From NCBI GenBank assembly GCA_018292915.2, contig JACVVK020000205.1, forward strand, positions 82,501-146,500: a DNA stretch of 64,000 bases, in the 5' to 3' direction. Of the stretch, positions 24,101 to 63,911 are shown one piece after another. Numbering within the stretch: the first letter of the stretch is position 1; each line of letters begins with the position of its first letter. The DNA is from Batillaria attramentaria (Eukaryota; Mollusca; Gastropoda; Batillariidae). The notes below the pieces were generated by a model. It had not been told where the DNA came from. It made no database searches and saw nothing but the letters and a program-made list of their open reading frames with translations. A program made the translations under genes and the position numbers.

Positions 24101-27100
24101 CAAGGTCAAGGTCATCGGTTCGTCTGTTTACTCCCAAACATTTTATTTCATCGCTCTGTTAGAATAAGCAAAAGAACAAGCAGTCACAAGCACCAGGCAA
24201 AACAAAATTAGCACAAACGATGTTCGTATGAGAAGATTTCTTGTCTAAAACTTTGGTGACCTTGACCTTGGGGGTAAAGGTCATAGAGACTGGGTGAAAA
24301 TTTTGTAAATACAACTTTCGGCATAACATTTGCCTTATATGCATTGATAACAATGCCTTTCTGGTGACCTCTAGTAAAGGTCTGCATGGTTTGGGTACCC
24401 AGCAAGTTTAATATGAATCACTGAATGTCTTTCTCGTTACTGTCCCGTGTAATTAATGAGATTCAAAATATAAAATCCGTCAGGTGGCGCTCTTTATCAT
24501 TGCTCAGTCGAGAATGACTGCCAGTTGCGTGTATTGGACTCGGTGTTTTATTCAACCGCCAAGTTAGATGGCTCATCTTACGTTTACTTGGGACAACGTG
24601 GCGCCGACACAGACAATGAAAACAATGGAGATGATTTACAGCAGACCAACGCAGTGACAAGATGACTTTGGGCCGCCAGCTTATTTAGGCTTGTATTGTG
24701 CGTGTATTGGAATCGGTGTTTTATTCAACCGCCAAGATAGATGGCTCATCTTACGTTTACTTGGAACAACGTGGCGCCGACACAGACAACAAGATGGCCA
24801 CCAGCCCATAATGTTGTTTCCATTTGATCACCTGCTATCGTCACGGTCGTTCTTTTGTAATGCCATGTATCCACACACACACACACACACACTCTCTCTC
24901 TCTCTCTCTCTAAATGGAAACAACTGACCGGGCTGTCACACCAATCTTGTTTTTGGAAGAGAGACGTCAAGTTGTATTCTTTGAAATCTATGACGTTTTT
25001 CCTCACTGGGATGACGCATAATACATTTGGCGTAATAACTTTGATACAGTTCTTGCAATGAAAGCAGGCCCATGAAAATTGAAGTGTTGCTGCTGCGTGC
25101 GCAGTGTAAAGATCGAATTAATGCCGACCCAATATGTTTAACAGACAAGTCTGCGCGGCGAACGTTTTCTAACTATGTGTTATGTCAGACATACACACGC
25201 GCGCGCGCACACACTCACACGCACGCACGCATACGCACACACACACACAGACTCGCGCGAGCCGCGTTTGTGCTCCATTGAGACCTATGTGGTGTTCTCT
25301 CACTCTACTATGCTATTGAGTGAGAGTCAGTGGGAAAAACAAAGCACACTACATCAATGAAACTCCCGCTTTCCCCGTCTACACATAGAGAACGTCCAAA
25401 AAGTGGCGACACATCCCCAAGAAATGCCAGTATCACGTCAATCAAACATGACGTCGGAAAAATGAAGCTGATACTGCCTTTTGCGTCAGTGCGCGCGTGC
25501 CTTTTCTGCGATGGATCTGACCTGTTCAGTACGTAAGCAGCCCTGCACAGCGTTCTGGGTTCTTCTTCTTTCATGAATTTGTTCTCCGTGCATATTCTGT
25601 TCATAAAGTATTGGAGTTGTATTCTGTTATATCCCGTGTCTTCTCTGCGATTGCACGAAGATGGCGACATAGTAGAAGTAAAATACACCACGTCTCCAAA
25701 CAGAGGAATTCGGAAAGAAAGTGGCGAGACACCCCCAAGAAAAAACAGCATCACGTCAATCAAACATGACGCACTTACTTTACGTCAGTGCGCGTGCGTC
25801 TCTTTTTCGATGTTTGTGAGGCGTGTGGCTTGTAGAGGAAATGTGCTGTGAGTACAAATTTTTGAGTCAACTGACGATAACGGCTGCAGTGAATTTTTCT
25901 AATTTTTTTGTATATTTTTTTATGGCACCCCAGGCTCATTATCTATATATAGTAGGAGCGATTTTGAGATCTAAAGTGTGTTCACCAGCACTTTCATCAG
26001 GTACGGCTTACGCCAAAAGTATAAAAGCGACAACCTCCAAAATTCACTTAGTTGAGAGTCCGTATTTATGCTATCTATGTCCAAAAAATGGAGTGGTTTA
26101 GGTAAATATTACGCCTTTAAACGCCAGAAAGCCACTTTTTCTGAAAAGGGCGATAACTCGCAAATCATGTGTGCAATCGTACCTGGATCGGGCCTTCTAT
26201 TCAACAATCTTGATTCATTTAGAAACCCCAAATTTGAAATCGATCGGTTCAGTATTTTCGGAGAAATAGGCATCTGAACTGGGTTCACATGCAATGTCAA
26301 CTCAGGCTCGGTTTACATGAAAACTATAAGAGCGACCATTTTCTAGTAGTGACTCTGTTCAGAGTCCGTATTCAAGCTATCTACTGCCAAAAAATTGAGT
26401 GATTTAAATAAATATTACGCCTGTACACGAAAGACAACCAACTTGTCTCAAAAGGGCGATAACTCCCAAATCACTTAAGCAATCATCACACGCTTGAATC
26501 GTCTAATGTAACATTTTGATATATTTGGATACCCCAAATTTGAAGCCATTCGGTTGAGTATTTTCGAAGAAACGGGCCCGGACACAATTCACACACACAC
26601 GCACGCACGCACACAAGGCACAGACGGCACTCACTGAGGAGGAGAAGCGCGTTCGGTGGACCGTACATGTCAGCATCGATGACGCACGTTTTCTTACGTC
26701 ATTGTCAGAGTTACACTTGCAAAATCGTCTCTGCGGGAGATCGGCAGTGACGTGCGTTTGTACCACAGATGCTTGCCCATGAACGTGGAAAATTTAGCCC
26801 ATCCTATGATGTTGTTTCCATTACTATGGAAACAACATAAAAATGGAGTGGTTTAGGTAAATATTACGCCTTTAAACGCCAGAAAGCCACTTTTTCTGAA
26901 ACTCAGGCTCGGTTTACATGAAAACTATAAGAGCGACCATTTTCTAGTAGTGACTGTTCAGAGTCCGTATTCAAGCTATCTACGCCTGAGCACTGAGACT
27001 GACAGTCAATCTGACCCTCTCTGTCATATTCAGATCTATGGTCATTTTGTAAAATCAATGACATGGGATAAAGAATATAGTTTTTGTGCCAGTTAATACA

Positions 27101-33917: not shown

Positions 33918-35291
33918 GCTCCCTTGTGACAGGGGTCAAGGTCATTCAAAAGAGTATGTTTGTAAATTTCTTATCACTATCTATCATTAAGCCAAGTAAG
34001 GTCAGTGTCTCTGGTGTTCTTAGTTCCTGGCAATGTTACACTTTTTTCCCAAAACTGACTATATGGCCTTGACCTTGGGTCAAGGTCATTCAAATAAGAT
34101 ATCAATGTCTATCATTACACCAAGTTGGATGCCTCTAGTATTTGTAGTTTCTTCAAAAACAGTAGTATTGAAATTCACAACAGACAGCTTTAATGACCTT
34201 GACCTTGAGTCAAGGTCATTTAAGTGGGTATTGGTCTTATCAATGTCTATTAGCATGCCAAGTTTGGCGCCTCTGCTGTTTGTTGTTTCTGAGAAAATGC
34301 CAATGTTACGGTTTCACAGAAATAGCTTGTACGGCCTTGACCTTGACACAAGGCTATTGAATACATCTATATCTGTAAAGTTCTTATCAATGTCTATCAC
34401 CATGTAAAGTTTAAAACCTCTGGTTTATGTAGATTCCGAGAAAATGCCAATGCAAAATTTTAAAACAGACAGCTTTAGTGACCTTGACCTTTAGTCAAGG
34501 TCATTCAACATGATATAATTTTAAAGGTCTTACGGCTGTCTATAGGCATACCAAATTTGGTGCCTCTGCTTTTCGTAGATTCTGAGAAAATGCCCATGTT
34601 AAGGTTTACTGTGGAAATGCGGTAAATAGCTTGTATAGCCTTGACCTTGACACAATGCCATTGAATACATGTACATCTGTAAAGTTCTTATCAATGTCCA
34701 TCATCATGCAAAGTTTAAAACCTCCCGTTTTTGTAGATTCCAAGAAAATGCCAATGCAAAATTGTCAAACAAACAGCTTTAGTGACCTTGACCTTGAGTC
34801 AAGGTCATTCAAGATGATATATTTTGAAAGGTCTTATTGTTGTCTATCAGCATGCCAAGTTTGGTGCCTGTGCTGTTTGTAGATTCTGAGAAAATGCCAA
34901 TGTTAAGGTTTTCTACGGAAATGCGGAAAATAGCTTGTCTGGCCTTGACCTTCACACAAGGCCATTAAATACATGTATATCTGTAAAGTTCTTATCAATG
35001 TCTAACATCATGCAAAGTTGAAAACCTTTGGTGTTTGTAGACTCCAAGAAAATGCCAATGTAAAATTTTCAAACAGACAGCTTTACTGACCTTGACCTTG
35101 AGTCAAGGTCATTCAAAATGATCTATTTTGAAAGGTCTTTTGGCTGTCTATCGGCATGCCAAGTTTGGTGACTCTGCTGTTTGTAGATTCTTAGAAAATG
35201 CCAATGTTAAGGTTTACTGCGGACACACAGACAGACACACACAGACGACGGAGGGTTATAACATAGACTCCCATTGTTACACAAGGGAGCC
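33918..35291. mobile_element. Satellite-bearing element with TCAAGGTCA half-site pairs
   Basis: Ends GGCTCCCTTGTG / CACAAGGGAGCC are inverted repeats. Between them is a tandem array with a monomer of about 145 bp and a higher-order pair of about 290-300 bp. Alternate monomers carry GACCTTGACCTTGAGTCAAG or GGCCTTGACCTTGACACAAG, at about 34063, 34193, 34334, 34478, 34637, 34783, 34940 and 35087. Monomers also share AATGCCAATGTTAAGG and TTCTTATCAATGTCTA. A truncated inverted relative is at 54929-55580. Confidence 0.7.
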
Positions 35292-36808: not shown

Positions 36809-36930
36809 ATATTGGGTCGGTAATTCGATCTTTACACTGCGCACGCAGCAGCAACACTTCAATTTTCATGGGCCTGCTTTTATTGCAAGAACTGTATCAA
36901 AGTTATTACGCCAAATGTATTATGCGTCAC

Positions 36931-38904
36931 CCCATCGATGAGTGCATCCTTGCCGTTGGAGATGGGGCTTGCGTGTCTCCATGACCCCGAGAGCTATGCC
37001 GGCGGGAGATTCGTCTCCTGGTAGGGCCACCCATGCTGGACAGGTCGAAGGGTAGAGGCCAGACGAAGCGCACTCACTGGTCCTCCAGGTTGGGGGTTTG
37101 AGTAGGGCTAACAACCCAACTCTTTAAAAAAAGAACACGTTACAGAAACTACAACCACAGATCTACAACGCAACTTGGTCCAGGAAGAGTCCTCTCTAGT
37201 AGAGCGCATGACGCGAGCTGGTGAAAGTCCTCGGGAAGCCAGTGCGCCGACTACTCTTCTGACGGCCAAGACCAAAGCCAGGATAGGGACCTGGAACATC
37301 CGAACCCTATATGAAACAGGAAAGACAGCACAAGTGAGTCAAGAAATGCTTAGATACAATCTGAAGCTGCTCGGCCTATGCGAGACAAGATGGACAGGAA
37401 CAGGACGCACACGACTCACCTCCGGAGACACCATCCTCTACTCTGGACACGAAGATGGCCAGCCACACATGCACGGAGTAGCGTTGCTGATGACACCTGA
37501 AGCAACACAAGCACTACTGTCCTGGGAACCAGTGTCACCAAGGATCCTGAGCGCCAGATTCAACTCTAAGGGCAGGAAAGTCACCATCCTCCAGTGCTAC
37601 GCCCCCACCAACGTGGCGGACGAGGAAGAAAAGGAGAACTTCTACGAGCAGCTCCAAGCCGTCCTCGACAAAGCACCGAGAAGAGACCTGAAGATCCTCA
37701 TGGGAGACCTCAACGCCAAAGTGGGCACCGACAACACAGACAGAGAACTCATCATGGGCAAACACGGAACAGGGACACAGAACGAGAACGGAGAGCTCTT
37801 CACAGAATTCTGCACCACCAACGACCTGGTCATCGGAGGCACCATCTTCCCCCACAAGACCATCCACAAAACCACCTGGACATCACCGGACGGAAGAACT
37901 GTAAACCAGATCGACCACATCACCATCGGCAGGAAGTGGCGAAGAAGCTTGCTGGACGTCCGAGCAAAGCGGGGAGCTGATGCAGCCTCAGACCATCACC
38001 TCGTCATTGCAGCGATCAAGATCAAGCTGAAGGCCTACAGAGACCAGGCGGACAGACCATCCCACAAGTACAACGTGCACAGTCTGAAGGAGAGCGTCAA
38101 GACCAACGCCTTCAGATGTGAGCTGAGGAACAGATTCAGCGCTCTCGACACACTACCTGAAGAGACAATCGAGGAGCACTGGCATGACCTGCGAGAAACC
38201 TGGACAGCAACATGCAGGGAAGTGCTGGGAAAGAAGACGAGACAACACAAAGAGTGGCTTACATCTGACACCTGGGACCTCATCACAGAGAGGAAACGCC
38301 TGAAAGACCTGATCAACCACACTGACGACCAAGACCACAAGCGCGACCTGCAGGCTCAATACTGGGACGCCAACCGGCAGGTCAAGAGGAGCGCAAGGAA
38401 CGACAAGAGGAACTTCATCAACGACCTCACAGAAGAAGCAGAAACAGCAGCAGGACAACGGAACATGAAACGGCTCTACGAAATAACAAGGACACTCTCT
38501 GGGAAAAAGAACAACCCCACCAGACCAGTCAAAGACAAGAACGGACAAATCATCACCAAAGAGGAAGACCAAAGGACAAGGTGGGCTGAACACTTTAAGG
38601 AAACGCTCAACAGGCCTCCACCACCAGTCCCACCAGACATACCACCGGCAGCCCAGCTACTCGACATCAGCACCAACCCCCCTACCAAGACCGAGATCAT
38701 CAAAGCCATCAAGTCCCTCAAGTCTGGCAAAGCAGCAGGCCCCGACGGCATACCACCAGAAGCCCTCAAGGCCGACATCCAGACCTCCACCGACATGCTG
38801 CACCCGCTCCTGAGGAAGATCTGGGAGAGCGAGAGCGTGCCACAAGACTGGAAGAAGGGACACCTGGTAAAGCTGCCAAAGAAAGGGGACCTCTCATCCT
38901 GTAG
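36931..38904 (+). mobile_element. Outer LINE, 5' part (endonuclease and start of RT)
   Basis: Inserted in X with the 11-bp duplication ATTATGCGTCA on the left (ending 36930) and right (from 48938). ORF from 37175 with GTWNIRTLYETGKTAQ, LCETRWTG, LMGDLNAKVG, QIDHITIGRKW and SDHHLVIAA (APE endonuclease), then KKGDLSSCS at the start of the RT. It stops abruptly at CATCCTGTAGC where the inner LINE begins. The remainder is at 47620-48937. RTE-like by single-ORF layout and non-poly(A) tail; the clade is not certain. Confidence 0.85.
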
Positions 38905-39018
38905 CCCCCATCGATGAGTGCATCCTTGCCGTTGGAGATGGGGCTTGCGTGTCTCCATGACCCCGAGAGCTATGCCGGCGGGAGATTCGTCTCCTGGTAG
39001 GGCCACCCTCGAGACAAC

Positions 39019-39295
39019 AAAATGTGTTGCTACACGCCACTTACTACACCACGACACCCCACTTACTACACCACGACACCCCACTTACTACACCACGACA
39101 CCCCACTTACTACACCACGACACCCCACTTACTACACTACGACACCCCACTTACTACACCACGACACCCCACTTACTACACCACGACACCCCACTTACTA
39201 CACCACGACACCCCACTTACTACACCACTACACCCCACTTACTACACCACTACACCCCACTTACTACACCACTACACCCCACTTGCTACACCGAT
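39019..39295 (+). repeat. Left terminal array of 22-bp units
   Basis: Unit ACTTACTACACCACGACACC(CC), about 12 copies. The outer units have CGACAC and the innermost three have CTACAC. Long meaningless frames (YYTTTPHL repeats) arise from it. Confidence 0.95.
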
Positions 39296-40261
39296 ACTCT
39301 GTTAACCCACTTGCTACACAATACTCTGCTACACAGCACTGACTTGCTACCCCAGTACGCATCTTGTACGGCAAATAAAAGCGAGACTTGCTCGAAATAC
39401 ACTTGATTTGAAAAAAGAGAGCTTTGACCTGTGTTGTTCATGTGTATAATTATGGCCGACCGTCACTACATGCCATTCTTCACAGTATGCGTTGTGAACA
39501 CTGAATTAGACTAGAAGGAGTAAATGAACAAAGAAGGGAAAATGAACAAAAATATTCACGCGCCCACCAATGCTGAATTTGTGAGTACTCCGAGTCCATT
39601 GAACACAGTGATCCGCCACAGGTGAAACCTTACAGCCGCTGTCCGCAGGCGGACCATAACATTTTCCTGTCGTCCGATTACACGTACTGGCAAGTAATTA
39701 AAATCCGTACCATCGTACACTGACTACCTCTGAATACATCAGTCTTGCCGAGACCTTGTAACTTTGAAACTGCTTCACCTCAGCTGCTGGCGATATACAA
39801 GACGTTAACACGGACTAAAAACACACACCACTCCTTACTGGTTCAATGTCCAGATTTCCCACCAAACAATCCCCAACCCCTCTCTCGGGACCGTGCCACA
39901 CACACCATGACATTACACCAACGGAAACCATGACAAAACGTGACAGACGGTTGTCGCCTCGTTGCACTTGATCTGTTGCGTCAGACTCAAACGCTATACG
40001 GCTGATTGGCGCCGGCCCATACTGCGGAACCTTCCTAGATGGTGACGGGTTTGGCCTAATCCGGATGTTGCTTACGTAACACACGCCAAACGACTTCCGT
40101 CGGGTGTTCTTCTTATCAAGTACCGAAATGGACCGCCACACCCAGCCGTAGTGTCACCATCCCATAAACCCGGCCACGCCCCTCCTCCTGCCAACACCTC
40201 CACCCCCCGCCCACGGCCAAAAACTGAGAGGATAACGCTGCGATTGGCGCCCGATGGCTGA

Positions 40262-40485
40262 CTCGGAAACAGCAATACCGCAGGTTATACGTATTTTGAA
40301 ACAAACTGAGTTGTAGGGTCACTCGTGTTTGTGTCATGGTGCAGAAAGGACGAAAAAGTAGTCTACCAACAATCACGGCTGACGGGTGACTCGGAAACAG
40401 CAAGTACTTGAAACGAACTTAGTTGTTCGGTCACTCTTCTTTTTGTCAGAGTGCAGAAAGGACGAACGAGTACCAACAATCATGG
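40262..40485 (+). repeat. Imperfect tandem duplication before the unknown gene
   Basis: GGCTGACTCGGAAACAGCAA through GTGCAGAAAGGACGAA..TACCAACAATCA appears twice (about 40256-40384 and 40379-40483) with an internal deletion in the second. It may be the promoter or 5' UTR of the unknown gene. Confidence 0.6.
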
Positions 40486-41704
40486 CTGAGGGCGATGGTG
40501 GTGGTAATAATTATGGAGAACTGGAACGTCCGGGTGCCGGAAAAATGCAAACCCCGACGACGTGAGTATGAGGCACAGTCAAGGAGGTTGGCCAAGTGTA
40601 TGTCGTGGTTTAACGACAACGGGTACCCGGCTGCGGCTGTTGTCACGCATATTGGTTTGAGAGGTTGCGTAGGCTTTGGCTCGGACGTCTTCAAGAACTT
40701 TCTTACAGAAAACCTCACAGGAAATGAGCAATGGATCAACGCAATCGGGGTGAACGGTGCAGCGAGTTCCGTTACATTTGTGGACTATACCGCCCCTATT
40801 AGCGCGAGCCAGCCGGGGCCGGAGCGAAACACAAGCTGAGATCAATGTGCAACAAGTTCCTCGTCCAGTTCTGGGCCGTACGCAGACATCATGTTTGAAG
40901 AAAGAGGAAAAACGTACGCGACTCCGCCAGAACTGCAGCAGCTTCGTCGCACGGTCACAAGGACTTCTTTCCAGTAAGTACATTGTGATTGTCATTTTCA
41001 TATTCTATTTATTTGTAGTTTTCTTTGTTTTATTTATTTATTTTTGTTGTTGTTGTTTTTGTTTTTCGGGGGTGGGGTGGGGGTGGGGGATTCGACAAGC
41101 GAATACAAAACGCAGCAGAACAAGTGACGGATTAAAAAAAACCATAAGCTTAGAAGAAAACTATAAGTGGTAGAGTAATTAATCACATTTGTGACATATC
41201 TGCCATTTAGTAGATTTACTAATTTACTACTCGAAATTGTGTGTATGTGTGTGTTTATTTTATGTTTATTTTGTGTTTTGTTGTTGTTCAAGTTTCTGCG
41301 AGAAGCACCGGTCAAAAGAGTTCCAAATTTGCGATTTAATATAAGTACAATCCAAGGTATTCTAGTCCACGTTTCACCAGCCCTCTAGCGACATTTCACC
41401 AGCCCTCTAGATCTTCCAGATTTAATGTGAAAAATAATTCAATCGGGGAAGCCACAAAGCCAACAGGGAAATCACAAGACATAAACAAGCTTCCTCAGAC
41501 GATCGCAGTGCTAGAGGCTGACGTCAAAATATTTAGTTCACGGAATTGACGTCATCTCTCTCTCTCGCTCTCTCTCTCTCTGACTCTCTGTATGATGACC
41601 TGCCTGAGGCTGACGTGAAATGTTTAGTTCACAAAACTGACCTCTCTCTCTCTTACCTGGTGGAAAAGGACGTTAAACTCCTAAACACCAACCCACCCAC
41701 GCTC

Positions 41705-41742
<38 letters not shown>

Positions 41743-42361
41743 CCCCCCCCCCCCCACCCGGCCCCACCCCTAGTCACGTGGCTAATCGGTCGAGGTCGTA
41801 GAGAATATAGTGTCATTGGTAGAACCTGGAGAGGGGAGAAACGGCGGGGAGAGGGGGGGGGGGGGTGGAGTGAATCACCAAATTTTTTCTCAAAATTACA
41901 CTATGCAGGTAAATCGGCACAATTTTGCATGTTAGCTGATGGAAAATATTGTAAGAAATTTATTCAAATTAATTACAGAATCCATCAACTACAAAGTGCC
42001 TCCTCCACTGTGGTGGCCTCAAGGTGTTCCATGGGGACGACCGAAAGGAGAGATCTGGAGGGACATGTCAATCAGAAACCTCCAGATTGTTCACGATGCA
42101 GCGGTAGCTGCTTTCGCAGGGAATGATAACCTGGTGAGTAATTTCCTCAATGTGAGTGTTACGTTTCTTGCATGGAATTTCGCGTGTTTGCTTATTGAGT
42201 GGTCGAAATATGCCGGTAATTCTGAGAGAGAAAAAAAGTTATCGAAACGATTTTCTGCCAAACTACTGACCACCAAGCCGTCCATGTATTATCCGCTGAC
42301 GGAATTCATGCCGACAGATCGAACTGGTGACAGAAAACCGCAGCTCCACCGGAGCTTGTAG
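40482..42361 (+). CDS. Unrecognised spliced-looking gene inside the minisatellite-ended element
   Basis: I do not recognise this gene. Evidence for one: a start MAEGDGGGNNYGELERPG at 40482; a frame (40423-40839) with RREYEAQSRRLAKCMSWFND, then GYPAAAVVTHIGLRGCVGFG and DVFKNFL; a neighbouring frame continuing to SFVARSQGLLS and a strong donor CCA|GTAAGTAC at about 40973; an acceptor AATTACAG before 41979; an exon 41979-42133 reading PPLWWPQGVPWGRPKGEIWR, then MSIRNLQIVHDAAVAAFAGN; a donor CTG|GTGAGTAA; and AATAAA at 42378. The first exon needs a frame change near 40550 and again near 40835, so it may be decayed or spliced differently. Possible identity: element-encoded DNA-binding or accessory protein, or a captured host gene. 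Confidence 0.35.
41541..41756 (+). repeat. (CT)n / SINE tail / (CTGT)n / polyC cluster
   Basis: CT tracts at 41553-41580 and 41641-41655, the SINE 3' tail GTGGAAAAGGACGTTAAACT (41658-41699), then CTGT repeats and a run of C. All non-coding. Confidence 0.8.
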
Positions 42362-42485
42362 GGGCCGCCGGCCTATCAATAAAGTGTCTTGAGTCTTGAG
42401 TCTCTCTCTCTCTCTGAACGCGGGAAAGTTTGAAAATTGGTCACAAGACCAAAGCTTCCACCGTTTTCAAATAAAGTTATTTCAA

Positions 42486-42545
<60 letters not shown>
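42486..42545. repeat. (CT)n(CA)n microsatellite
   Basis: CT repeats passing directly into CA repeats, just after the second AATAAA of the unknown gene region. Confidence 0.95.
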
Positions 42546-42552
<7 letters not shown>

Positions 42553-42599
42553 ACAGAGGAAGGGCAGCATTTGAGGCACATTAATGAGTACTTATCACA

Positions 42600-43112
42600 A
42601 CACACATTGGCTGTCTAATGGCTGGTCGTACGAACTAAGCACCCAGTCAGTACGTGAGCTAGACCGGAGAACGCATTGTGCTTGGCGTCGAATGATTATT
42701 TCTCACAGCGCGTACCTGCGGTCAAGGGTGCATTGTGGCTGGTGTAATGCAAATGACTATTTGTCACAGTGTTTCCTGGCTGTCTATTGGCCGGCCTAGT
42801 CTCACGAAGAAAGCGCCGAGTCGCAGCGAGAGTAGCGTGATGTAGAAAACCACAGTGTATTGTATTTGGTGTGATTGCGTTTCAATATTTATCTTCGGCC
42901 ATATGCTCTGCTGACCATGAACATTGTCTCTGTCTGCTGTGTATTGTCTGTCTGAATACGCCAAGGATCTATTGTTCTTGTTGTTTGATACACTTATCCC
43001 TCTGTTGACACAGGACGTTTCTACGATGGATGGTCCGCAAAGCCATGGGAAAAGAGCCAGGAAAACGAAAGTAGCATACACACCAAGTCACCATTAACTG
43101 CGGTGGCCTTCC

Positions 43113-43152
<40 letters not shown>

Positions 43153-44084
43153 AAGTTGTGCTTTCTGTTCTGAAAAATGTCGAACTGAAGACAATAAAAC
43201 GACACGTTAACCCGCGTTATCAGTGTTTGTATGCGTGCGTGTTTGCGCTAGCGTGTGTGTCTGTGTGCGATTGAAACTCAGTGAACAAAATTGTTGGGGA
43301 AGGTCATCTACTGCTTCTTAAGGAGCAACGTAAAAATTATGTTTTTGAACCACAGCTTCAGTTTGGTGACGTCACTGGGTGATAGAAGATAAATTGGACA
43401 CTCATTAACTCCTTTGTTACTTGGCTCTCTTCCTGTACACCTATGTGACCGTGATCAAAGAAGTGACAAGAAAGGCTATGCCACTCAACTCACGTCGGTA
43501 CTGCGACGTGCACGGCACATGGGTCGGGCCACGTGAAAAGACAACGCGTGCTAGTCCCGCTTCACTGACGGGTCTAAGACACAGGGGCGACGCTGAATGA
43601 GTGAATGAAATATATACGTTTTAAGTCCCTTCCTCCTGTGGGAGATCTTGGGACAATTTTATCAGATTTTCTAAATGGGCATTACACCCATTTTTATTTT
43701 TAATTTTTTTTGTTATAGTTGTATATTTATAAGACTTTAAGTAATTCTTTTGGTTTTTAAGTCTTCTTGAGAGTCCCGAAACGTCCCTGTCTCTACAGGT
43801 CTTTCTTTTTATTCTCTATTTTTTTTTTTAAAAGGGTAAAACTTCAGGACCTTGTCAGGAAATAATTAGAGAAAAAAGGGGCCACAGGAGCGACGCTCTT
43901 CCGCTTGAGCCAGTTAAAAAGGACGGCATTAACGTATTGTGGGTGCCAATCGTCCAGACTGGTATTCAAATACGGTTAGAAGGAGAGTGGGGCTAATTGA
44001 ATTCTTTCGCTGGGAACTGGCAGAAATCGTCGCGCGAGCTGAGGGCATTTCTTTATTTCTGTAATGCTTGATCGGTTTCTCTCG
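42600..44084. other. Interior of the minisatellite-ended element, right part, no gene
   Basis: Contains a GT tract (43113-43149), AATAAA at about 43192 and A/T-rich sequence. The largest frame (105 codons, 42764-43081 minus) shows no recognisable motif. Confidence 0.4.
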
Positions 44085-44428
44085 ATCGGTGTAGTAAGTG
44101 GGGTGTAGTGGTGTAGTAAGTGGGGTGTAGTGGTGTAGTAAGTGGGGTGTAGTGGTGTAGTAAGTGGGGTGTCGTGGTGTAGTAAGTGGGGTGTCGTGGT
44201 GTAGTAAGTGGGGTGTCGTGGTGTAGTAAAGTGGGGTGTCGTGGTGTAGCAAGTGGGGTGTCGTGGTGTAGTAAGTGGGGTGTCGTGGTGTAGTAAGTGG
44301 GGTGTCGTGGTGTAGTAAGTGGGGTGTCGTGGTGTAGTAAGTGGGGTGTCGTGGTGTAGTAAGTGGGGTGTCGTGGTGTAGTAAGTGGGGTGTCGTGGTG
44401 TAGTAAGTGGCGTGTAGCAACACATTTT
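44085..44428 (-). repeat. Right terminal array of 22-bp units, inverted
   Basis: Unit GTAGTAAGTGGGGTGTCGTG(GT), about 15 copies. The innermost three units carry GTAGTGG in place of GTCGTGG, mirroring the left array. The length difference from the left array (67 bases) equals three units plus one inserted A at about 44229. Confidence 0.95.
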
Positions 44429-44578
44429 TATATATGATGCTGGACAGGTCGAAGGGTAGAGGCCAGACGAAGCGCACTCACTGGTCCTCCAGGTTGGGGG
44501 TTTGAGTAGGGCTAACAACCCAACTCTTTAAAAAAAGAACACGTTACAGAAACTACAACCACAGATCTACAACGCAAC

Positions 44579-47500
44579 TTGGTCCAGGAAGAGTCCTCTC
44601 TAGTAGAGCTCATGACGCGAGCTGGTGAAAGCCCTCGGGAAGCCAGTGCGCCGACTACTCTTCTGACGGCCAAGACCAAAGCCAGGATAGGGACCTGGAA
44701 CATCCGAACCCTATACGAAACAGGAAAGACAGCACAAGTGAGTCAAGAAATGCATAGATACAATCTGAAGCTGCTCGGCCTATGTGAGACAAGATGGACA
44801 GGAACAGGACGCACTCGACTCACCTCCGGAGACACCATCCTCTACTCCGGACACGAAGACGGCACACCACACATGCATGGAGTAGCGTTGCTGATGACAC
44901 CTGAAGCAACACAAGCACTATTGTCCTGGGAACCAGTGTCACCAAGGATCCTGAGCGCCAGATTCAACTCGAAGGGCAGGAAAGTCACCATCCTCCAGTG
45001 CTACGCTCCCACCAACATGGCGGATGAGGAAGAAAAGGAGAACTTCTACGAGCAGCTCCAAGCCGTCCTCGACAAAGCACCGAGAAGAGACCTGAAGATC
45101 CTCATGGGAGACCTCAACGCCAAAGTGGGCACCGACAACACAGACAGAGAACTCATCATGGGCAAACACGGAACAGGGACACAGAACGAGAACGGAGAGC
45201 TCTTCACAGAATTCTGCACCACCAACGACCTGGTCATCGGAGGCACCATATTCCCCCACAAGACCATCCACAAAACCACCTGGACATCACCGGACGGAAG
45301 AACTGTAAACCAGATCGACCACATCACCATCGGCAGGAAGTGGCGAAGAAGCTTGCTGGACGTCCGAGCAAAGCGGGGAGCTGATGCAGCCTCAGACCAT
45401 CACCTCGTCATTGCAGCGATCAAGATCAAGCTGAAGGCCTACAGAGACCAGGCGGACAGACCATCCCACAAGTACAACGTGCACAGTCTGAAGGAGAGCG
45501 TCAAGACCAACGCCTTCAGATGTGAGCTGAGGAACAGATTCAGCGCTCTCGACACACTACCTGAAGAGACAATCGAGGAGCACTGGCACGACCTGCGAGA
45601 AACCTGGACAGCAACATGCAGGGAAGTGCTGGGAAAGAAGACGAGACAACACAAAGAGTGGCTTACATCTGACACCTGGGACCTCATCACAGAGAGGAAA
45701 CGCCTGAAAGACCTGATCAACCACACTGACGACCAAGACCACAAGCGCGACCTGCAGGCTCAATACTGGGACGTCAACCGGCAGGTCAAGAGGAGCGCAA
45801 GGAACGACAAGAGGAACTTCATCAACGACCTCACAGAAGAAGCAGAAACAGCAGCAGGACAACGGAACATGAAACGGCTCTACGAAATAACAAGGACACT
45901 CTCTGGGAAAAAGAACAACCCCACCAGACCAGTCAAAGACAAGAACGGACAAATCATCACCAAAGAGGAAGACCAAAGGACAAGGTGGGCTGAACACTTT
46001 AAGGAAACGCTCAACAGGCCTCCACCACCAGTCCCACCAGACATACCACCGGCAGCCCAGCTACTCGACATCAGCACCAACCCCCCTACCAAGACCGAGA
46101 TCATCAAAGCCATCAAGTCCCTCAAGTCTGGCAAAGCAGCAGGCCCCGACGGCATACCACCAGAAGCCCTCAAGGCCGACATCCAGACCTCCACCGACAT
46201 GCTGCACCCGCTCCTGAGGAAGATCTGGGAGAGCGAGAGCGTGCCACAAGACTGGAAGAAGGGACACCTGGTAAAGCTGCCAAAGAAAGGGGACCTCTCA
46301 TCCTGTAGCAACTGGCGAGGCATCATGCTCCTGTCCATACCAGGGAAGGTTCTCACCAGGATCATCCTGGAGAGGCTGAAGACTGCGCTGGACAAGACAC
46401 TCCGGGAGGAACAGGCAGGATTCCGCAACGACCGATCCTGCACTGATCACATAGCCACGATGAGGATCATCATCGAGCAGTCCCTGGAGTGGCAGACCCC
46501 CCTGTACAGCACCTTCGTTGACTTCCAGAAGGCGTTCGACAGTGTTGACAGGGAGGTCATCTGGAAGCTGATGTCTCACTACGGTTTTCCACCAAAGTTT
46601 GTCAGCATCATCCGACAGCTGTACGAAGATGCCACCTGCCAGGTAATCCACAACGGGAAACTGACAGAGCCATTCACAGTACGGACCGGCGTTCGTCAAG
46701 GCTGCATCCTCTCACCCACAATCTTCCTGATGGTGGTCGACTGGGTCATGAGGCAAGCCACCGACGGTAAGAGGACAGGGATCCAGTGGACCTTCAGCAA
46801 ACAGCTCGAGGACCTGGATTTCGCGGACGACATCGCCCTCCTCTCCCACAAACAACAAGATGCGCAGGAGAAGCTGAACAGAGTCGCCGAAGAAGCTGAG
46901 AAGACCGGCCTCAAGATCAACATCAGCAAGACCGAAGTCATGAGAGTCAACCACAAACAGCACGACCCCATCCAGCTGCACCAGGAAGACATCAAAGAGG
47001 TGGACAAGTTCATCTACCTCGGCAGCGTTGTCAGCAAGGATGGAGGAACGGACGAGGACATCAAGAGCCGCACCAACAAAGCCAGACATGCCTTTCGCAC
47101 TCTGCGCCCCATCTGGAGATCAACAGCCCTATCCCTGCGAAACAAGATCCGGATCTTCAACGCAAATGTGAAGTCGGTCCTACTCTATGGCTCGGAGACA
47201 TGGCGCACCACCAAGACAGGCTCCCACAGGCTGCAAACCTTCATCAACAGATGCCTCCGCAACATTCTCAACATCAGATACCCACTGGTGATCACCAACC
47301 AAGACCTCTGGGAGCGAACAAGACAGGTCCCCATCGAGCAGGAGATCAAGAAAAGGAAATGGGGATGGATCGGACACACTTTGCGAAAGCCAACATCAAA
47401 TGTCACCAGGCAGTCCCTTGATTGGAACCCCCAGGGAAAGCGCAAAGTGGGCCGACCGAAGCAGACCTGGCGGAGGAGTACGGACGCTGAAGCCAAGGCC

Positions 47501-47602
47501 GCCGGAACGACGTGGGCCGAACTAAAGAGGGCATCCCAGAACCGAGTGCGCTGGCGGAGTGTGGTTGTAGCCCTATGTTCCCCAGGGAATAAAGAGGACT
47601 AA
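44579..47602 (+). CDS. LINE endonuclease-reverse transcriptase, intact ORF of the inner LINE
   Basis: 1007 codons without a stop; a retrotransposon protein, not a host gene. Residues about 30-290 form the APE-like endonuclease (GTWNIRTLYE, LLGLCETRWTG, ILMGDLNAKVG, DHITIGRKWR, SDHHLVIAA). Residues about 560-820 form the reverse transcriptase ([56 protein letters not shown], catalytic FADD near 748 in place of YADD). The C-terminus carries [20 protein letters not shown] (about 926) and GRPKQTWRR. It ends directly before a short tandem-repeat tail. The start is uncertain: translation may begin at MTRAGESPRE a few codons in. The intact frame suggests recent activity, but its 5' UTR is split by a 5.4-kb insert. 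Confidence 0.88.
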   Translation: MVQEESSLVELMTRAGESPREASAPTTLLTAKTKARIGTWNIRTLYETGKTAQVSQEMHRYNLKLLGLCETRWTGTGRTRLTSGDTILYSGHEDGTPHMHGVALLMTPEATQALLSWEPVSPRILSARFNSKGRKVTILQCYAPTNMADEEEKENFYEQLQAVLDKAPRRDLKILMGDLNAKVGTDNTDRELIMGKHGTGTQNENGELFTEFCTTNDLVIGGTIFPHKTIHKTTWTSPDGRTVNQIDHITIGRKWRRSLLDVRAKRGADAASDHHLVIAAIKIKLKAYRDQADRPSHKYNVHSLKESVKTNAFRCELRNRFSALDTLPEETIEEHWHDLRETWTATCREVLGKKTRQHKEWLTSDTWDLITERKRLKDLINHTDDQDHKRDLQAQYWDVNRQVKRSARNDKRNFINDLTEEAETAAGQRNMKRLYEITRTLSGKKNNPTRPVKDKNGQIITKEEDQRTRWAEHFKETLNRPPPPVPPDIPPAAQLLDISTNPPTKTEIIKAIKSLKSGKAAGPDGIPPEALKADIQTSTDMLHPLLRKIWESESVPQDWKKGHLVKLPKKGDLSSCSNWRGIMLLSIPGKVLTRIILERLKTALDKTLREEQAGFRNDRSCTDHIATMRIIIEQSLEWQTPLYSTFVDFQKAFDSVDREVIWKLMSHYGFPPKFVSIIRQLYEDATCQVIHNGKLTEPFTVRTGVRQGCILSPTIFLMVVDWVMRQATDGKRTGIQWTFSKQLEDLDFADDIALLSHKQQDAQEKLNRVAEEAEKTGLKINISKTEVMRVNHKQHDPIQLHQEDIKEVDKFIYLGSVVSKDGGTDEDIKSRTNKARHAFRTLRPIWRSTALSLRNKIRIFNANVKSVLLYGSETWRTTKTGSHRLQTFINRCLRNILNIRYPLVITNQDLWERTRQVPIEQEIKKRKWGWIGHTLRKPTSNVTRQSLDWNPQGKRKVGRPKQTWRRSTDAEAKAAGTTWAELKRASQNRVRWRSVVVALCSPGNKED

Positions 47603-47619
47603 ACTAAACTAAACTAAAC

Positions 47620-48937
47620 ATCCTGTAGCAACTGGCGAGGCATCATGCTCCTGTCCATACCAGGGAAGGTTCTCACCAGGATCATCCTGGAGAGGCTGAA
47701 GACCGCGCTGGACAAGACACTCCGGGAGGAACAGGCAGGATTCCGCAACGACCGATCCTGCACTGATCACATAGCCACGATGAGGATCATCATCTAGCAG
47801 TCCCTGGAGTGGCAGACCCCCCTGTACAGCACCTTCGTTGACTTCCAGAAGGCGTTCGACAGTGTTGACAGGGAGGTCATCTGGAAGCTGATGTCTCACT
47901 ACGGTTTTCCACCAAAGTTTGTCAGCATCATCCGACAGCTGTACGAAGATGCCACCTGCCAGGTAATCCACAACGGGAAACTGACAGAGCCATTCACAGT
48001 ACGGACCGGCGTTCGTCAAGGCTGCATCCTCTCACCCACAATCTTCCTGATGGTGGTCGACTGGGTCATGAGGCAAGCCACCGACGGCAAGAGGACAGGG
48101 ATCCAGTGGACCTTCAGCAAACAGCTCGAGGACCTGGATTTCGCGGACGACATCGCCCTCCTCTCCCACAAACAACAAGATGCGCAGGAGAAGCTGAACA
48201 GAGTCGCCGAAGAAGCTGAGAAGACCGGCCTCAAGATCAACATCAGCAAGACCGAAGTCATGAGAGTCAACCACAAACAGCACGACCCCATCCAGCTGCA
48301 CCAGGAAGACATCAAAGAGGTGGACAAGTTCATCTACCTCGGCAGCGTTGTCAGCAAGGATGGAGGAACGGACGAGGACATCAAGAGCCGCACCAACAAA
48401 GCCAGACATGCCTTTCGCACTCTGCGCCCCATCTGGAGATCCACAGCCCTATCCCTGCGAAACAAGATCCGGATCTTCAACTCAAATGTGAAGTCGGTCC
48501 TACTCTATGGCTCGGAGACATGGCGCACCACCAAGACAAGCTCCCACAAGCTGCAAACCTTCATCAACAGATGCCTCCGCAACATTCTCAACATCAGATA
48601 CCCACTGGTGATCACCAACCAAGACCTCTGGGAGGGAACAAGACAGGTCCCCATCGAGCAGGAGATCAAGAAAAGGAAATGGGGATGGATCGGACACACT
48701 CTGCGAAAGTCAACATCAAATGTCACCAGGCAGTCCCTTGATTGGAACCCCCAGCGAAAGCGCAAAGTGGGCCGACCGAAGCAGACCTGTCGGAGGAGTA
48801 CGGACGCTGAAGCCAAGGCCGCCGGAACGACGTGGGCCGAACTAAAGAGGGCGTCCCAGAACCGAGTGCGCTGGCGGAGTGTGGTTGCAGCCCTATGTTC
48901 CCCAGGGAATAAAGAGGATTAAACTAAACTAAACTAT
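47620..48937 (+). pseudogene. Outer LINE, 3' part with nonsense mutation
   Basis: It continues the outer LINE from CATCCTGTAGCAACTGGCG to its own AAACT-repeat tail. It is nearly identical to the inner LINE over the same region, but the codon in RIIIEQSLEW that is GAG at 46473-46475 is TAG at 47793-47795. Further differences include YPLVITNQDLWEG and CRRSTDAEA. From 47891 an open frame of 343 codons covers the RT catalytic FADD and the C-terminal domain. The element is dead through both the stop and the interruption. Confidence 0.85.
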
Positions 48938-49051
48938 TATGCGTCATCCCAGTGAGGAAAAACGTCATAGATTTCAAAAAATACAACTTGACGTCTCTCT
49001 TCCAAAAACAAGATTGGTGTGACAGCCCGGTCAGTTGTTTCCATTCAGAGA

Positions 49052-62461: not shown

Positions 62462-63911
62462 CACCCAAAGAAAGTTAGTACTGGCTGTGTGGTATCAGCC
62501 TCCCTCAACATTTCCGTAGCACACCTGATCTTTCAAACAAGACAAAGATTAGAAAAGGAAACGGTAATGACTGCGAAGTGGTTACAAGTTAAGCAAATAA
62601 AAGCGACATAAAAGGGACAGAAACCACTTAACTTTCACAAAGGACGGTACAGGTCAACGTTTCAGCTTTCGCCTTCCTCAGGACACAAACAAATTTGATT
62701 TGTTTGTGTCCTGAGGAAGGCGACAGCCAAAACGTTGACCTGTGCCGTCCTTTGTGAAAGTTAAATACAAAGATTGTTCCAAAACATTTCTACTTTAGAA
62801 GGGAGAAAAAAAAATACGGTTTTTTGACCTTAGCACACACGCTGCTCAAACCATTCAAACTTCATAGTTACTTCATGCAACATAGTGTACACTGACTTGA
62901 TGTCTTGTGCCAGTTTTTCCATTCTGGGCATGAGATGCGTCATGATCAGGTCTGGCACTACATAGATGTGGGATCCACACAGACGGTCCATCAATACATT
63001 GCCCTCACAACCTACTCCTTCAGCATCCTAGAATAAAAGACACATTTTGCCACTAATTCCTTCTTGCTAATTAACACACAGGTACACAATCCTTGCATCT
63101 GAGAGGAATTTGATAGAAAAGAAGATAAAAGTGAAAAGTTACACAGGCAGACAAGTTTGATTTGCACTGGCTGGCAGACAGACAGACAGACAGGCAGGCA
63201 GGCAGGCAGGCAGGTAATAAAATTACGCAAGTTTCTCATTTCCTTTTAAATTGTACAGGGTGGGTGGGTGTTTAGGGGTTTAACGTCCTTTTCCACCACG
63301 TAGGGTGATATCAACGACGGGGCAACGATGAAAAAGCCAGCACAATATTTGGCCCCAGCCGGGATCGAACTCACGACCCGAGCATTAGAAGTCCAACGCT
63401 CTACCATTCGACCACCCCGGCTCCCCTTTAAATTGTACAGAGACTCAGAGACTGATGGTTCTCAAACAGTTCAAAAACAAAGTTTGAAGGGGAGGTGGGT
63501 GAGGGGGAGGAATAAACTGTACGAGAGAGCCAGAACGCACTACAGCACTGTTCCTTACAGCTTTCAAAACCGAGGGTCATTTGGACCCTCTCTGTCAAAT
63601 TAAGGGGGGGCACTTTGTAAACTCACTGATGTACAGCCTCAAAATCTCTGCACCAAATTCTGAAATCTCATAAATGAAGCACATATGTGCGTAATAAGGA
63701 ACACCGCTAAAGTTTGCAGCAAATGAATTAATAAGACACCAAACTGTATTACTGTGGCATCAGTCCGTAAGAGGAGATGAGGTGTCAGTCCCAACTGTCT
63801 TGCACACACAGCCACAGCCCGACAATTATTGGACTCTACAGAGCCGCAGGTGATCACATGACGACAACCTTGCTTCAGGGCATCTGCCATCAAGAACTCC
63901 AGCTTTCTGAC
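54638..63911 (-). CDS. D-cysteine desulfhydrase-like PLP enzyme, copy C (exons 3-9 in window, 5' end cut by window edge)
   Basis: Third paralog; exons 1 and 2 (start and PLP lysine) should lie to the right of the window. Exons present in gene order: 63911-63753, 63027-62897, 62022-61923, 60857-60757, 58274-58111, 56206-56066, 54747-54638. All are open with phases matching copies A and B. It is the most divergent copy: the substrate/PLP-loop motif SIQSNHC is SVESNNC (the His at the position equivalent to 94 is Asn), exon 4 is six bases shorter (two codons lost, in frame, with [12 protein letters not shown] replaced by [10 protein letters not shown]), and exon 7 reads [29 protein letters not shown] and LFLHTGG are intact. 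A LINE, an exon-8 duplication array, two hairpins and SINEs sit in its introns. It is either a changed-specificity paralog or an early relic still free of stops. Confidence 0.85.
54929..55580. mobile_element. Truncated TCAAGGTCA satellite element, intron 8 of copy C
   Basis: It starts at GGCTCCCTTGTGTAACAATG, the same end as the 33918-35291 element, and runs inward as its inverse. The CTCAAGGTCAAGGTCA motifs lie at about 55112, 55405 and 55555, with the variant GTGTCGATGTCAAGGCC at 55259. The far end is missing. Confidence 0.65.
56270..56900 (+). repeat. 217-bp tandem array with duplicated exon-8 pieces, intron 7 of copy C
   Basis: Period 217 bp: the segment GTGTGCAAAAAAGAATGCGT starts near 56351, 56568 and 56785. 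Each unit contains the 3' half of exon 8 with its donor, then CCAATCAAGACAGTTATCCC and a CTACTA/CTG trinucleotide tract. The last unit joins an exon-8 acceptor (about 56894). All pieces have lost the active-site DPTYSGK coding segment and are out of frame, so they are pseudo-exons. Confidence 0.85.
57046..57119. repeat. (CTA/CTG)n trinucleotide tract
   Basis: CTACTACTG..CTG..CTA repeats. The same repeat type recurs at 56300-56343 in the tandem array and at 57660-57715. Confidence 0.9.
57124..57463. mobile_element. hAT-like MITE, intron 7 of copy C
   Basis: The left end CAGGGGCGTAGGAACCACGG and right end TTCCTACGCGCCTG form inverted repeats of hAT type. The interior is polyG/polyC, a CA tract (57290-57341) and GGGCCCC blocks. 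It inserted in CTACCTGTGTGCAAAAAAG of a further exon-8 fragment (57464-57550); the flanks share CTGTG but a full 8-bp duplication is not clear. Confidence 0.55.
57464..57560 (-). pseudogene. Fifth partial exon 8 of copy C
   Basis: It keeps the exon-8 acceptor side (ATTTCATCTACCAAATGCCG) and the 3' half with the donor-side TTGCACACAG, but about 50 bases including the DPTYSGK codons are deleted and the frame is broken. Confidence 0.75.
57717..57787 (+). repeat. tRNA-like SINE head fragment
   Basis: GAGCCGGGGTGGTCGAATGG...GGTCGTGAGTTCGTATCCCA; same family as 36636-36808, truncated after the B box. It is not a tRNA gene: the acceptor stem does not pair and there is an extra base in the B box. 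Confidence 0.7.
58866..60714. mobile_element. Short palindromic element hosting the LINE
   Basis: Removing the LINE and one duplication leaves TTAGTGAAGCTTACATG and CATGTAAGCTTCACTTG as inverted repeats with GGCAATTGCC between them. The LINE landed in a small foldback of about 60 bp that copies A and B do not have. Confidence 0.5.
58894..60670 (+). mobile_element. 5'-truncated LINE in intron 6 of copy C, antisense to the gene
   Basis: The 12-bp duplication TACATGTGGTTG flanks it (58882-58893 and 60671-60682), and the tail is AAGT repeats. The frame is open from the left border to 60665 (about 590 codons): [86 protein letters not shown]. The endonuclease is missing and no ATG opens the frame, so it is dead on arrival. 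It belongs to a sister subfamily of the LINEs at 36931-48937. Confidence 0.88.
61015..61335. other. Extra DNA in intron 5 of copy C
   Basis: Copies A and B run CTAAGTGTAATAGCTTTTGATCTG into shared sequence, whereas copy C departs at GATCTACTGAAGGG and returns near 61345. No repeat family or protein is recognised. Confidence 0.4.
61732..61807. repeat. Hairpin-forming inverted repeat, intron 5 of copy C
   Basis: Arms TTTGTGCCGGTTGATGCATA.. and ..TATGCATTAACCGGCACAAA are complementary over about 36 bases with one mismatch and a 3-base loop. Copies A and B have only one arm (ATGCAAGTAAATA..), so this is an inverted duplication of resident sequence in copy C. Confidence 0.85.
62551..62766. mobile_element. 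Foldback retroelement-like insertion with hammerhead-like motif, intron 4 of copy C
   Basis: 216 bp flanked by the 9-bp duplication ACAAAGATT (62542-62550, 62767-62775); copy B has a single ACAAAGATT. Positions 62629-62763 form inverted arms of about 66 bases with about 4 mismatches. The minus strand of the left arm reads CTGAGGAAGGCGAAAGCTGAAACG, which fits a CUGANGA-stem-GAAAC hammerhead core like those in Penelope-like elements. Confidence 0.6.
63259..63426 (-). mobile_element. tRNA-derived SINE with 14-bp target duplication, intron 3 of copy C
   Basis: Same family as 36636-36808 (head GAGCCGGGGTGGTCGAATGG, B box GAGTTCGATCCCGGC, tail AAACACCCACCCACCC). TTTAAATTGTACAG is repeated at 63245-63258 and 63427-63440. 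Copy A has one such site (TTTTTAATTGTTTAG) and no SINE. Confidence 0.88.

What the first reader, a model, noticed from the sequence alone, without database searches (positions are those of the whole stretch)
39009..44436. Possible undescribed transposable element whose terminal inverted repeats are 22-bp minisatellite arrays
The insertion is defined to the base by the uninterrupted 5' UTR of a sister LINE. Both ends are 22-bp arrays in opposite orientation, and the order of unit variants is mirrored: three CTACAC-type units innermost and CGACAC-type outside, with the same non-repeat cap (AAAATGTGTTGCTACACGCC) and the same inner edge (CTACACCGAT). That mirror symmetry argues that the arrays are one terminal repeat copied to both ends, not two independent satellites. 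The interior has an unknown gene and no transposase I can name. No target duplication is clear: 10 bases (left) and 8 bases (right) lie outside the caps.
Basis: partly seen in the sequence, partly recalled or inferred. Interest (0 to 1): 0.85.

Follow-up and report, generated by a model that had tools for sequence, protein, structure and literature searches.

The report
Snail transposon with minisatellite inverted ends
A mud-snail genome carries a recently active family of jumping DNA whose two ends are mirror-image stretches of a 22-letter repeat; the overall design is known from flies and worms, but the enzyme that moves this family was not found.

Summary
Window 39011-44436 is a 5,426-bp member of a multicopy transposable-element family in what is almost certainly Batillaria attramentaria. 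Inverted 22-bp arrays with caps stop 8 bp inside each terminus; the outermost 8 bp are fixed but not inverted (GAGACAAC left, TATATATG right). A genome census gave 62 left and 153 right ends (reversed-pattern control 0); 37 of 62 left ends face a listed right end within 20 kb. Of 20 elements scored, 17 have exact 7-bp target duplications, two of them in uninformative CA repeats. Five copies, this one included, are identical over about 960 bp, so movement was recent.

The window copy itself lacks a duplication. All 100 listed copies (of 330 matches) of the host LINE are uninterrupted there: a blunt insertion plus TC.

Interiors are inverted relative to the ends in 8 of 20 elements read, and relatives of 125-175 bp exist. 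The three-exon gene is open (241 aa) in one copy and broken in 9 of 10, this one included; no homologue was found outside Batillaria.

Best reading: a non-autonomous foldback-type DNA transposon mobilised in trans by an unidentified transposase. Galileo (P superfamily) is the closest structural match, but no P or MULE match lies near any listed end.

The parts
39009..39010 (.). Two extra bases (TC) between the host LINE and the element; neither LINE nor element
   Evidence: Absent from the LINE junction; the element starts at GAGACAAC in other copies
39011..44436 (+). Complete transposable element, 5426 bp
   Evidence: Borders shared by other copies at unrelated sites, most with 7-bp target duplications
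39011..39018 (+). Left terminal 8 bp GAGACAAC, not part of the inverted repeat
   Evidence: Conserved at left ends; an older subfamily has GAGACTAC
39019..39038 (+). Left cap AAAATGTGTTGCTACACGCC
39039..39292 (+). Left 22-bp array: 11 units plus a partial unit that leads into CTACACCGAT
40482..40973 (+). Exon 1 of the element's gene, frame-disrupted in this copy
41979..42133 (+). Exon 2
   Evidence: Splice-site reading; the same exon is part of an open 241-aa frame in the C375 copy
43014..43097 (+). Exon 3 with stop codon
44088..44408 (-). Right 22-bp array: 14 units plus a partial unit
44409..44428 (-). Right cap, identical to the left cap
44429..44436 (+). Right terminal 8 bp TATATATG, not part of the inverted repeat
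   Evidence: Conserved at right ends
38906..39008 (+). Host LINE, 5' part left of the insertion
   Evidence: 100% identical to 36930-37032
44437..46309 (+). Host LINE right of the insertion (endonuclease/RT frame 44579-47602)
   Evidence: 98.9% identical to 37033-38905; RVT_1, Exo_endo_phos

Best explanation
A non-autonomous, foldback-type cut-and-paste DNA transposon family. Shown: fixed ends GAGACAAC...TATATATG, inverted 22-bp arrays with caps just inside them, 7-bp target duplications, recent copies identical at several sites, interior inversion, and short copies made of little more than the ends. Inferred: a transposase supplied in trans binds the repeated 22-bp units, brings the ends together, cuts at the 8-bp termini and inserts with a 7-bp stagger. 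The inverted arrays then recombine with each other, which flips the interior, changes unit number and shortens copies. The 241-aa gene is not needed in cis.
For: 17 of 20 elements have an exact 7-bp duplication (two of the 17, L018 and L027, lie in CA repeats where the match says little); shuffled flank pairs give 0.1 on average, at most 2. Left-end pattern 62 matches, right-end pattern 153, reversed-pattern controls 0. 37 of 62 left ends face a right end within 20 kb, 0 same-strand neighbours, 1 on the outer side (only 100 of the 153 right ends were listed; one right end is used twice and the C141 pair is probably false). Empty site: of 17 joined flanks, that of L025 matches uninterrupted SINE copies, best window 63265-63429 at 97% without gaps, and that of L022 a nearby repeat at 94.5% without gaps; two further matches (L009, L027) are to own flank or simple repeat. 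Zero differences over about 960 bp among WIN, L009, L010, L012, L020 (17 of 20 elements had the segments). Interior inverted relative to the ends in L013-L018 and L023, and in L019 by one inner edge. Short relatives of 125-175 bp with 7-bp duplications: L031, L034, L042, L045 (L042 and L045 share flanks). Trans mobilisation: of 10 copies holding all three exons, 9 have broken frames.
Against: No transposase was found in any element. The window copy has no target duplication and carries an extra TC; L017 has 8 bp and L028 6 of 7. Of 16 older-subfamily loci only 6 showed a right end in the stretch fetched, and two of these (L037, L039) scored no duplication. 25 of 62 left ends had no listed right partner. 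The large paired spans C120 (13.2 kb) and C257 (8.8 kb) could not be read, so an autonomous copy may exist.
Confidence: 0.87

Rival explanations
1. The family is mobilised by a P-superfamily transposase, i.e. it is a mollusc counterpart of Galileo: THAP domains would bind the repeated units and insertion would give 7-bp duplications.
For: Galileo has long, internally repetitive inverted ends and 7-bp duplications (PMC3573991, abstract and passages), and its THAP domain binds repeats in them (PMC3688188, abstract). 42 P-type RNase-H matches in this genome, 8 of them in frames over 800 aa.
Against: No P match lies within 39 kb of any of the 162 listed ends. The only THAP exon seen (C375) sits in a 793-bp segment absent from the other loci held at that time, so it looks nested. 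P-element termini were not compared.
Confidence: 0.35
2. The family is a MULE foldback like most described foldback elements.
For: Most foldback elements are placed in Mutator (PMC4079207, passages).
Against: Duplications are 7 bp, not the 8-10 reported for Tetris. 13 MULE matches in the genome, all 26 candidates scored, the nearest 796 kb from a listed end.
Confidence: 0.1
3. The family is mobilised by a hAT transposase.
For: Repbase annotates some hAT families with a 7-bp duplication (an example query in PMC4455052, passages).
Against: No direct evidence either way: the hAT search did not complete.
Confidence: 0.1
4. The 241-aa protein is itself the mobilisation protein, so intact copies are autonomous and the superfamily would be new.
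For: Open over three exons in C375; its exon 1 is annotated separately as P0001; all three exons are present in 10 of the 12 standard-orientation elements.
Against: Small; no Pfam match; no homologue outside Batillaria among 5.8 billion proteins at the tool's sensitivity; absent from the inverted group, which moved as well (only exon 3 remains there).
Confidence: 0.1
5. Two unrelated satellites flanking a duplicated genomic segment.
For: The arrays are true tandem repeats.
Against: Fixed borders, target duplications, empty site, inward pairing.
Confidence: 0.01

Closest known systems
Galileo (P superfamily, Drosophila)
   Same: Long inverted ends with internal tandem repeats; 7-bp target duplications; copies with mismatched 7-bp flanks; frequent rearrangement of ends
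   Different: No P transposase found here; repeat unit 22 bp instead of about 210 bp; outer 8 bp are not inverted
Tetris (Drosophila virilis foldback)
   Same: Non-autonomous; tandem repeats inside the inverted ends; no transposase found
   Different: TIR-220 units of about 220 bp; 8-10 bp duplications
Foldback FB and Tm1 (MULE foldbacks)
   Same: Internally repetitive inverted ends (FB recalled; Tm1 seen only in the search listing)
   Different: MULE-type; longer duplications (recalled)
Dada
   Same: 6- or 7-bp target duplications (PMC8869645, passages)
   Different: Many insert in multicopy RNA genes; here the targets are varied sequences
pearl / DTC84 MITEs of bivalves
   Same: Mollusc non-autonomous elements with tandem repeats (PMC5139131, passages)
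   Different: There the repeats are internal, not in the inverted ends

Membership tests
Foldback-type DNA transposon | Long inverted terminal repeats built of tandem repeats | tested here: met
   but they begin 8 bp inside the termini
Foldback-type DNA transposon | Target-site duplication of fixed length | tested here: met
   7 bp exact in 17 of 20; not in the window copy
P superfamily / Galileo | 7-bp duplication | tested here: met
P superfamily / Galileo | P-type transposase between the ends | tested here: inconclusive
   No PF21787 match within 39 kb of the 162 listed ends; 53 right ends and ends with more than 3 mismatches were not seen
P superfamily / Galileo | Termini shared with a P element of the same genome | not tested
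MULE foldback | 8-11 bp duplication (range recalled) | tested here: not met
MULE foldback | MULE transposase between the ends | tested here: inconclusive
   13 matches, nearest 796 kb from a listed end; 53 right ends were not listed
hAT | hAT transposase between the ends | not tested
   The PF05699 search did not complete
Dada | 6-7 bp duplication | tested here: met
Dada | Insertion in multicopy RNA genes | tested here: inconclusive
   Flanks include (CA)n, a SINE and varied sequence, which speaks against it; no search for RNA genes in the flanks was run
Helitron | No target duplication, 3' CTRR end (recalled) | tested here: not met
   7-bp duplications, TATATATG end

The most novel reading that the evidence does not exclude
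A new transposon superfamily: asymmetric 8-bp termini, minisatellite inverted repeats as multi-site binding arrays, 7-bp duplications, and either the homologue-free 241-aa protein or an unread protein in the 13.2-kb C120 copy as the catalytic component.
Probability: 0.12. Interest if true: 0.75.

Novelty: new member of a known kind. Interest (0 to 1): 0.48.

Why it matters
Foldback elements with repeat-built ends are described mainly from flies, worms and plants (partly recalled); this adds a recently active one in a gastropod. Because the two outer 8-mers differ, each copy records which end is which, so interior inversions between the arrays can be read directly. It also shows a transposon seeding minisatellite arrays at many sites, and offers identical young copies for testing how many repeat units a transposase needs.

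Tried and rejected
THAP exon in the C375 copy (PF05485, E 2.1e-9) as proof of P membership: rejected, since the 793-bp segment carrying it had no other match in the window and loci held then. ORF fragments in C141 (L038) as a decayed transposase: no Pfam match at useful score and one unnamed protein only; left as a lead. A remembered coral protein family for them was not confirmed. NRF1-like WWP..VPW motif in exon 2: E 0.46 against PDB chains, not significant. Ectopic recombination between two copies for the missing duplication in the window: unlikely, because both flanks are adjacent bases of one LINE. C141 paired at 13.6 kb is probably a false pair: its own degenerate right end lies near 4.96 kb. 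L021 is paired with an inner cap (5623 bp); its true end gives 6187 bp. L033 is mostly N (4449 of 5000) and was not pursued.
Full report
What is there. Two 22-bp arrays in opposite orientation lie at 39032-39292 and 44088-44415, each bordered outside by the same 20-bp cap. The order of unit variants is mirrored: outer CGACAC-type units, three CTACAC-type units innermost, then CTACACCGAT on both sides. The segment interrupts a LINE whose tandem sister at 36930-38905 lacks it.

Source. A protein encoded by a second copy is annotated in Batillaria attramentaria (P0001). The window's assembly has 715.3 Mb, which fits the 313,966,700 bp = 43.87% repeat content given for that species' assembly (PMC10382545, passages). 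The species name is an inference from these two facts.

It is a family. A 401-bp query found 58 matches in the genome, only 40 of 427 candidates being scored. Twenty 10-kb loci were fetched, plus two extensions. Their ends show that matching stops not at the caps but 8 bp further out: GAGACAAC on the left, TATATATG on the right, followed by unrelated flanks. The element in the window is therefore 39011-44436, 5,426 bp. The outermost 8 bp are conserved at each end but are not inverted copies of each other.

Insertion signature. Eighteen elements with both ends, the window's included, were tabulated, and C375 was completed from the neighbouring stretch. With the small element L031 this makes 20; 17 have an exact 7-bp duplication, against a mean of 0.1 and a maximum of 2 for shuffled flank pairs. 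Two of the 17 (L018, L027) lie in CA repeats, where the match is uninformative. Exceptions: L017 (8 bp), L028 (6 of 7) and the window copy (none). Of the other loci fetched, L020 had a left end only and L026 had no cap. Joined flanks of 17 elements were compared with the window and the loci held: those of L025 match uninterrupted SINE copies, best window 63265-63429 at 97% without gaps; those of L022 a repeat nearby at 94.5% without gaps; the matches of L009 and L027 are to own flank or simple repeat; the other 13 gave none.

Census. Allowing 3 mismatches, the left-end pattern has 62 matches and the right-end pattern 153, with 0 for the reversed pattern in both cases. Using the 62 left and the 100 listed right ends, 37 left ends face a right end within 20 kb, at spans from 135 bp to 13.6 kb, 18 of them between 4.8 and 5.8 kb. 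There are 0 same-strand neighbours and 1 opposite-strand neighbour on the wrong side. Details to discount: C141 is probably a false pair (its own degenerate right end is near 4.96 kb); C58:1372706 took an inner cap (true length 6187 bp); the two C482 left ends share one right end; 25 left ends had no partner. An older subfamily has GAGACTAC at the left. Of 16 such loci looked at, 6 showed a right end in the stretch fetched; four, of 125-175 bp, have 7-bp duplications (L031, L034, L042, L045, the last two with the same flanks) and two (L037, L039) scored none.

Age. Over about 960 bp of interior, 17 of 20 elements could be compared. The window copy is identical to L009, L010, L012 and L020. L013-L016, L018 and L023 are identical to each other and 0.1% from L017; the two groups differ by 0.8-1.0%. 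L022 is the most distant, up to 2.6%, and reads as if it held many small indels.

Inversion. For orientation 20 elements were read (the 18 with C375 and the one-ended L020). In 12 the interior has the window's orientation relative to the two distinguishable ends. In L013-L018 and L023 it is inverted, and in L019 by its one readable inner edge. The 7 full copies of the inverted group are nearly identical, so this is best read as one flip between the arrays followed by spread, with L019 possibly a second case.

Gene. Three exons with GT/AG splice sites (40482-40973, 41979-42133, 43014-43097) form an open 241-aa frame in the C375 copy. The other 9 of 10 copies holding all three exons are broken: eight, the window's included, stop after residue 27, and L027 after residue 59. 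The protein has no Pfam match and no homologue but P0001 in two searches at E up to 10. A 22-residue resemblance to NRF1 has E 0.46. The inverted group keeps exon 3 only. So the gene is not needed in cis.

No transposase found. P-type RNase-H matches: 42, all 51 candidates scored, none within 39 kb of any of the 162 listed ends. MULE: 13 matches, all 26 candidates scored, the nearest 796 kb from a listed end. Since 53 right ends were not listed, and more diverged ends were not sought, this does not exclude either superfamily. hAT did not complete. Interiors of C120 and C257 could not be read. The THAP exon in C375 is in a segment with no other match in the loci held then.

The window copy. The LINE junction pattern has 330 matches; the 100 listed all have nothing between CCC and ATG. 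Against that, the window has TC plus the element and no duplication, with no LINE base lost. Since both flanks are adjacent LINE bases, recombination between two distant copies does not explain it. A blunt capture of an excised element carrying 2 bp of donor flank is possible: four of the 17 exact duplications end in TC (L009, L012, L013, L024). This step is inferred, and an assembly error is not excluded.

Mechanism and comparison. Galileo joins long repeat-bearing inverted ends with 7-bp duplications and has copies with mismatched 7-bp flanks (PMC3573991, abstract and passages); its THAP domain binds sites in the repeats (PMC3688188, abstract). Tetris is a non-autonomous foldback with 8-10 bp duplications and no known transposase (PMC4079207, abstract and passages). 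Foldback structure is said to arise independently in different lineages, and some hAT families too carry 7-bp duplications (PMC4455052, passages). I therefore file the snail family as foldback-type by structure, with the superfamily unassigned. Literature: foldback with transposon and gastropod gave 0 papers; foldback with mollusc, transposable element and terminal inverted repeat gave 2, and the passages I saw of both show no such family; minisatellite with mollusc, terminal inverted repeats and transposon gave 4, of which I saw passages of one; at least three of foldback element, terminal inverted repeats, tandem repeats and 7-bp target site duplication gave 5, of which I opened two. Within these searches of an open-access library I found no description of this family; Repbase was not searchable here.

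Noticed in passing
36930-38905 and 38906-46309; 46299-47616 and 47619-48936: The host LINE carries two tandem partial duplications (98.9% identical), so the whole stretch from about 36930 to 48936 is a rearranged LINE.
   Followed up: partly
36918-36933 and 48935-48950: A direct repeat of 16 bp with one mismatch (TATTATGCGTCAYCCC) flanks the LINE composite; the copy of the surrounding repeat at 24787-25748 has the site once, so it looks like the LINE's own target duplication.
   Followed up: partly
L011:1161-1955: 793-bp segment with a THAP domain nested in the C375 copy, with imperfect inverted ends by eye.
   Followed up: partly
L038:1103-1998: Decayed ORF fragments inside an old GAGACTAC element; one 97% relative is known, on a 1.8-kb contig of an unnamed source.
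   Followed up: partly
G000, 42 places: Many P-superfamily RNase-H matches in this snail, eight in frames of over 800 aa without stops.
   Followed up: no
L037 and L038: A 478-bp and a 4.96-kb element appear to share flanks, as if one is an internally deleted copy in a duplicated locus.
   Followed up: no
L011 (1255-aa frame): Long LINE reverse-transcriptase-like frame inserted in the C375 copy upstream of exon 1; named by eye, not searched.
   Followed up: no
34174-35223: Tandem array of about 304 bp (3.5 copies; also read as a 146-bp period) elsewhere in the window.
   Followed up: no
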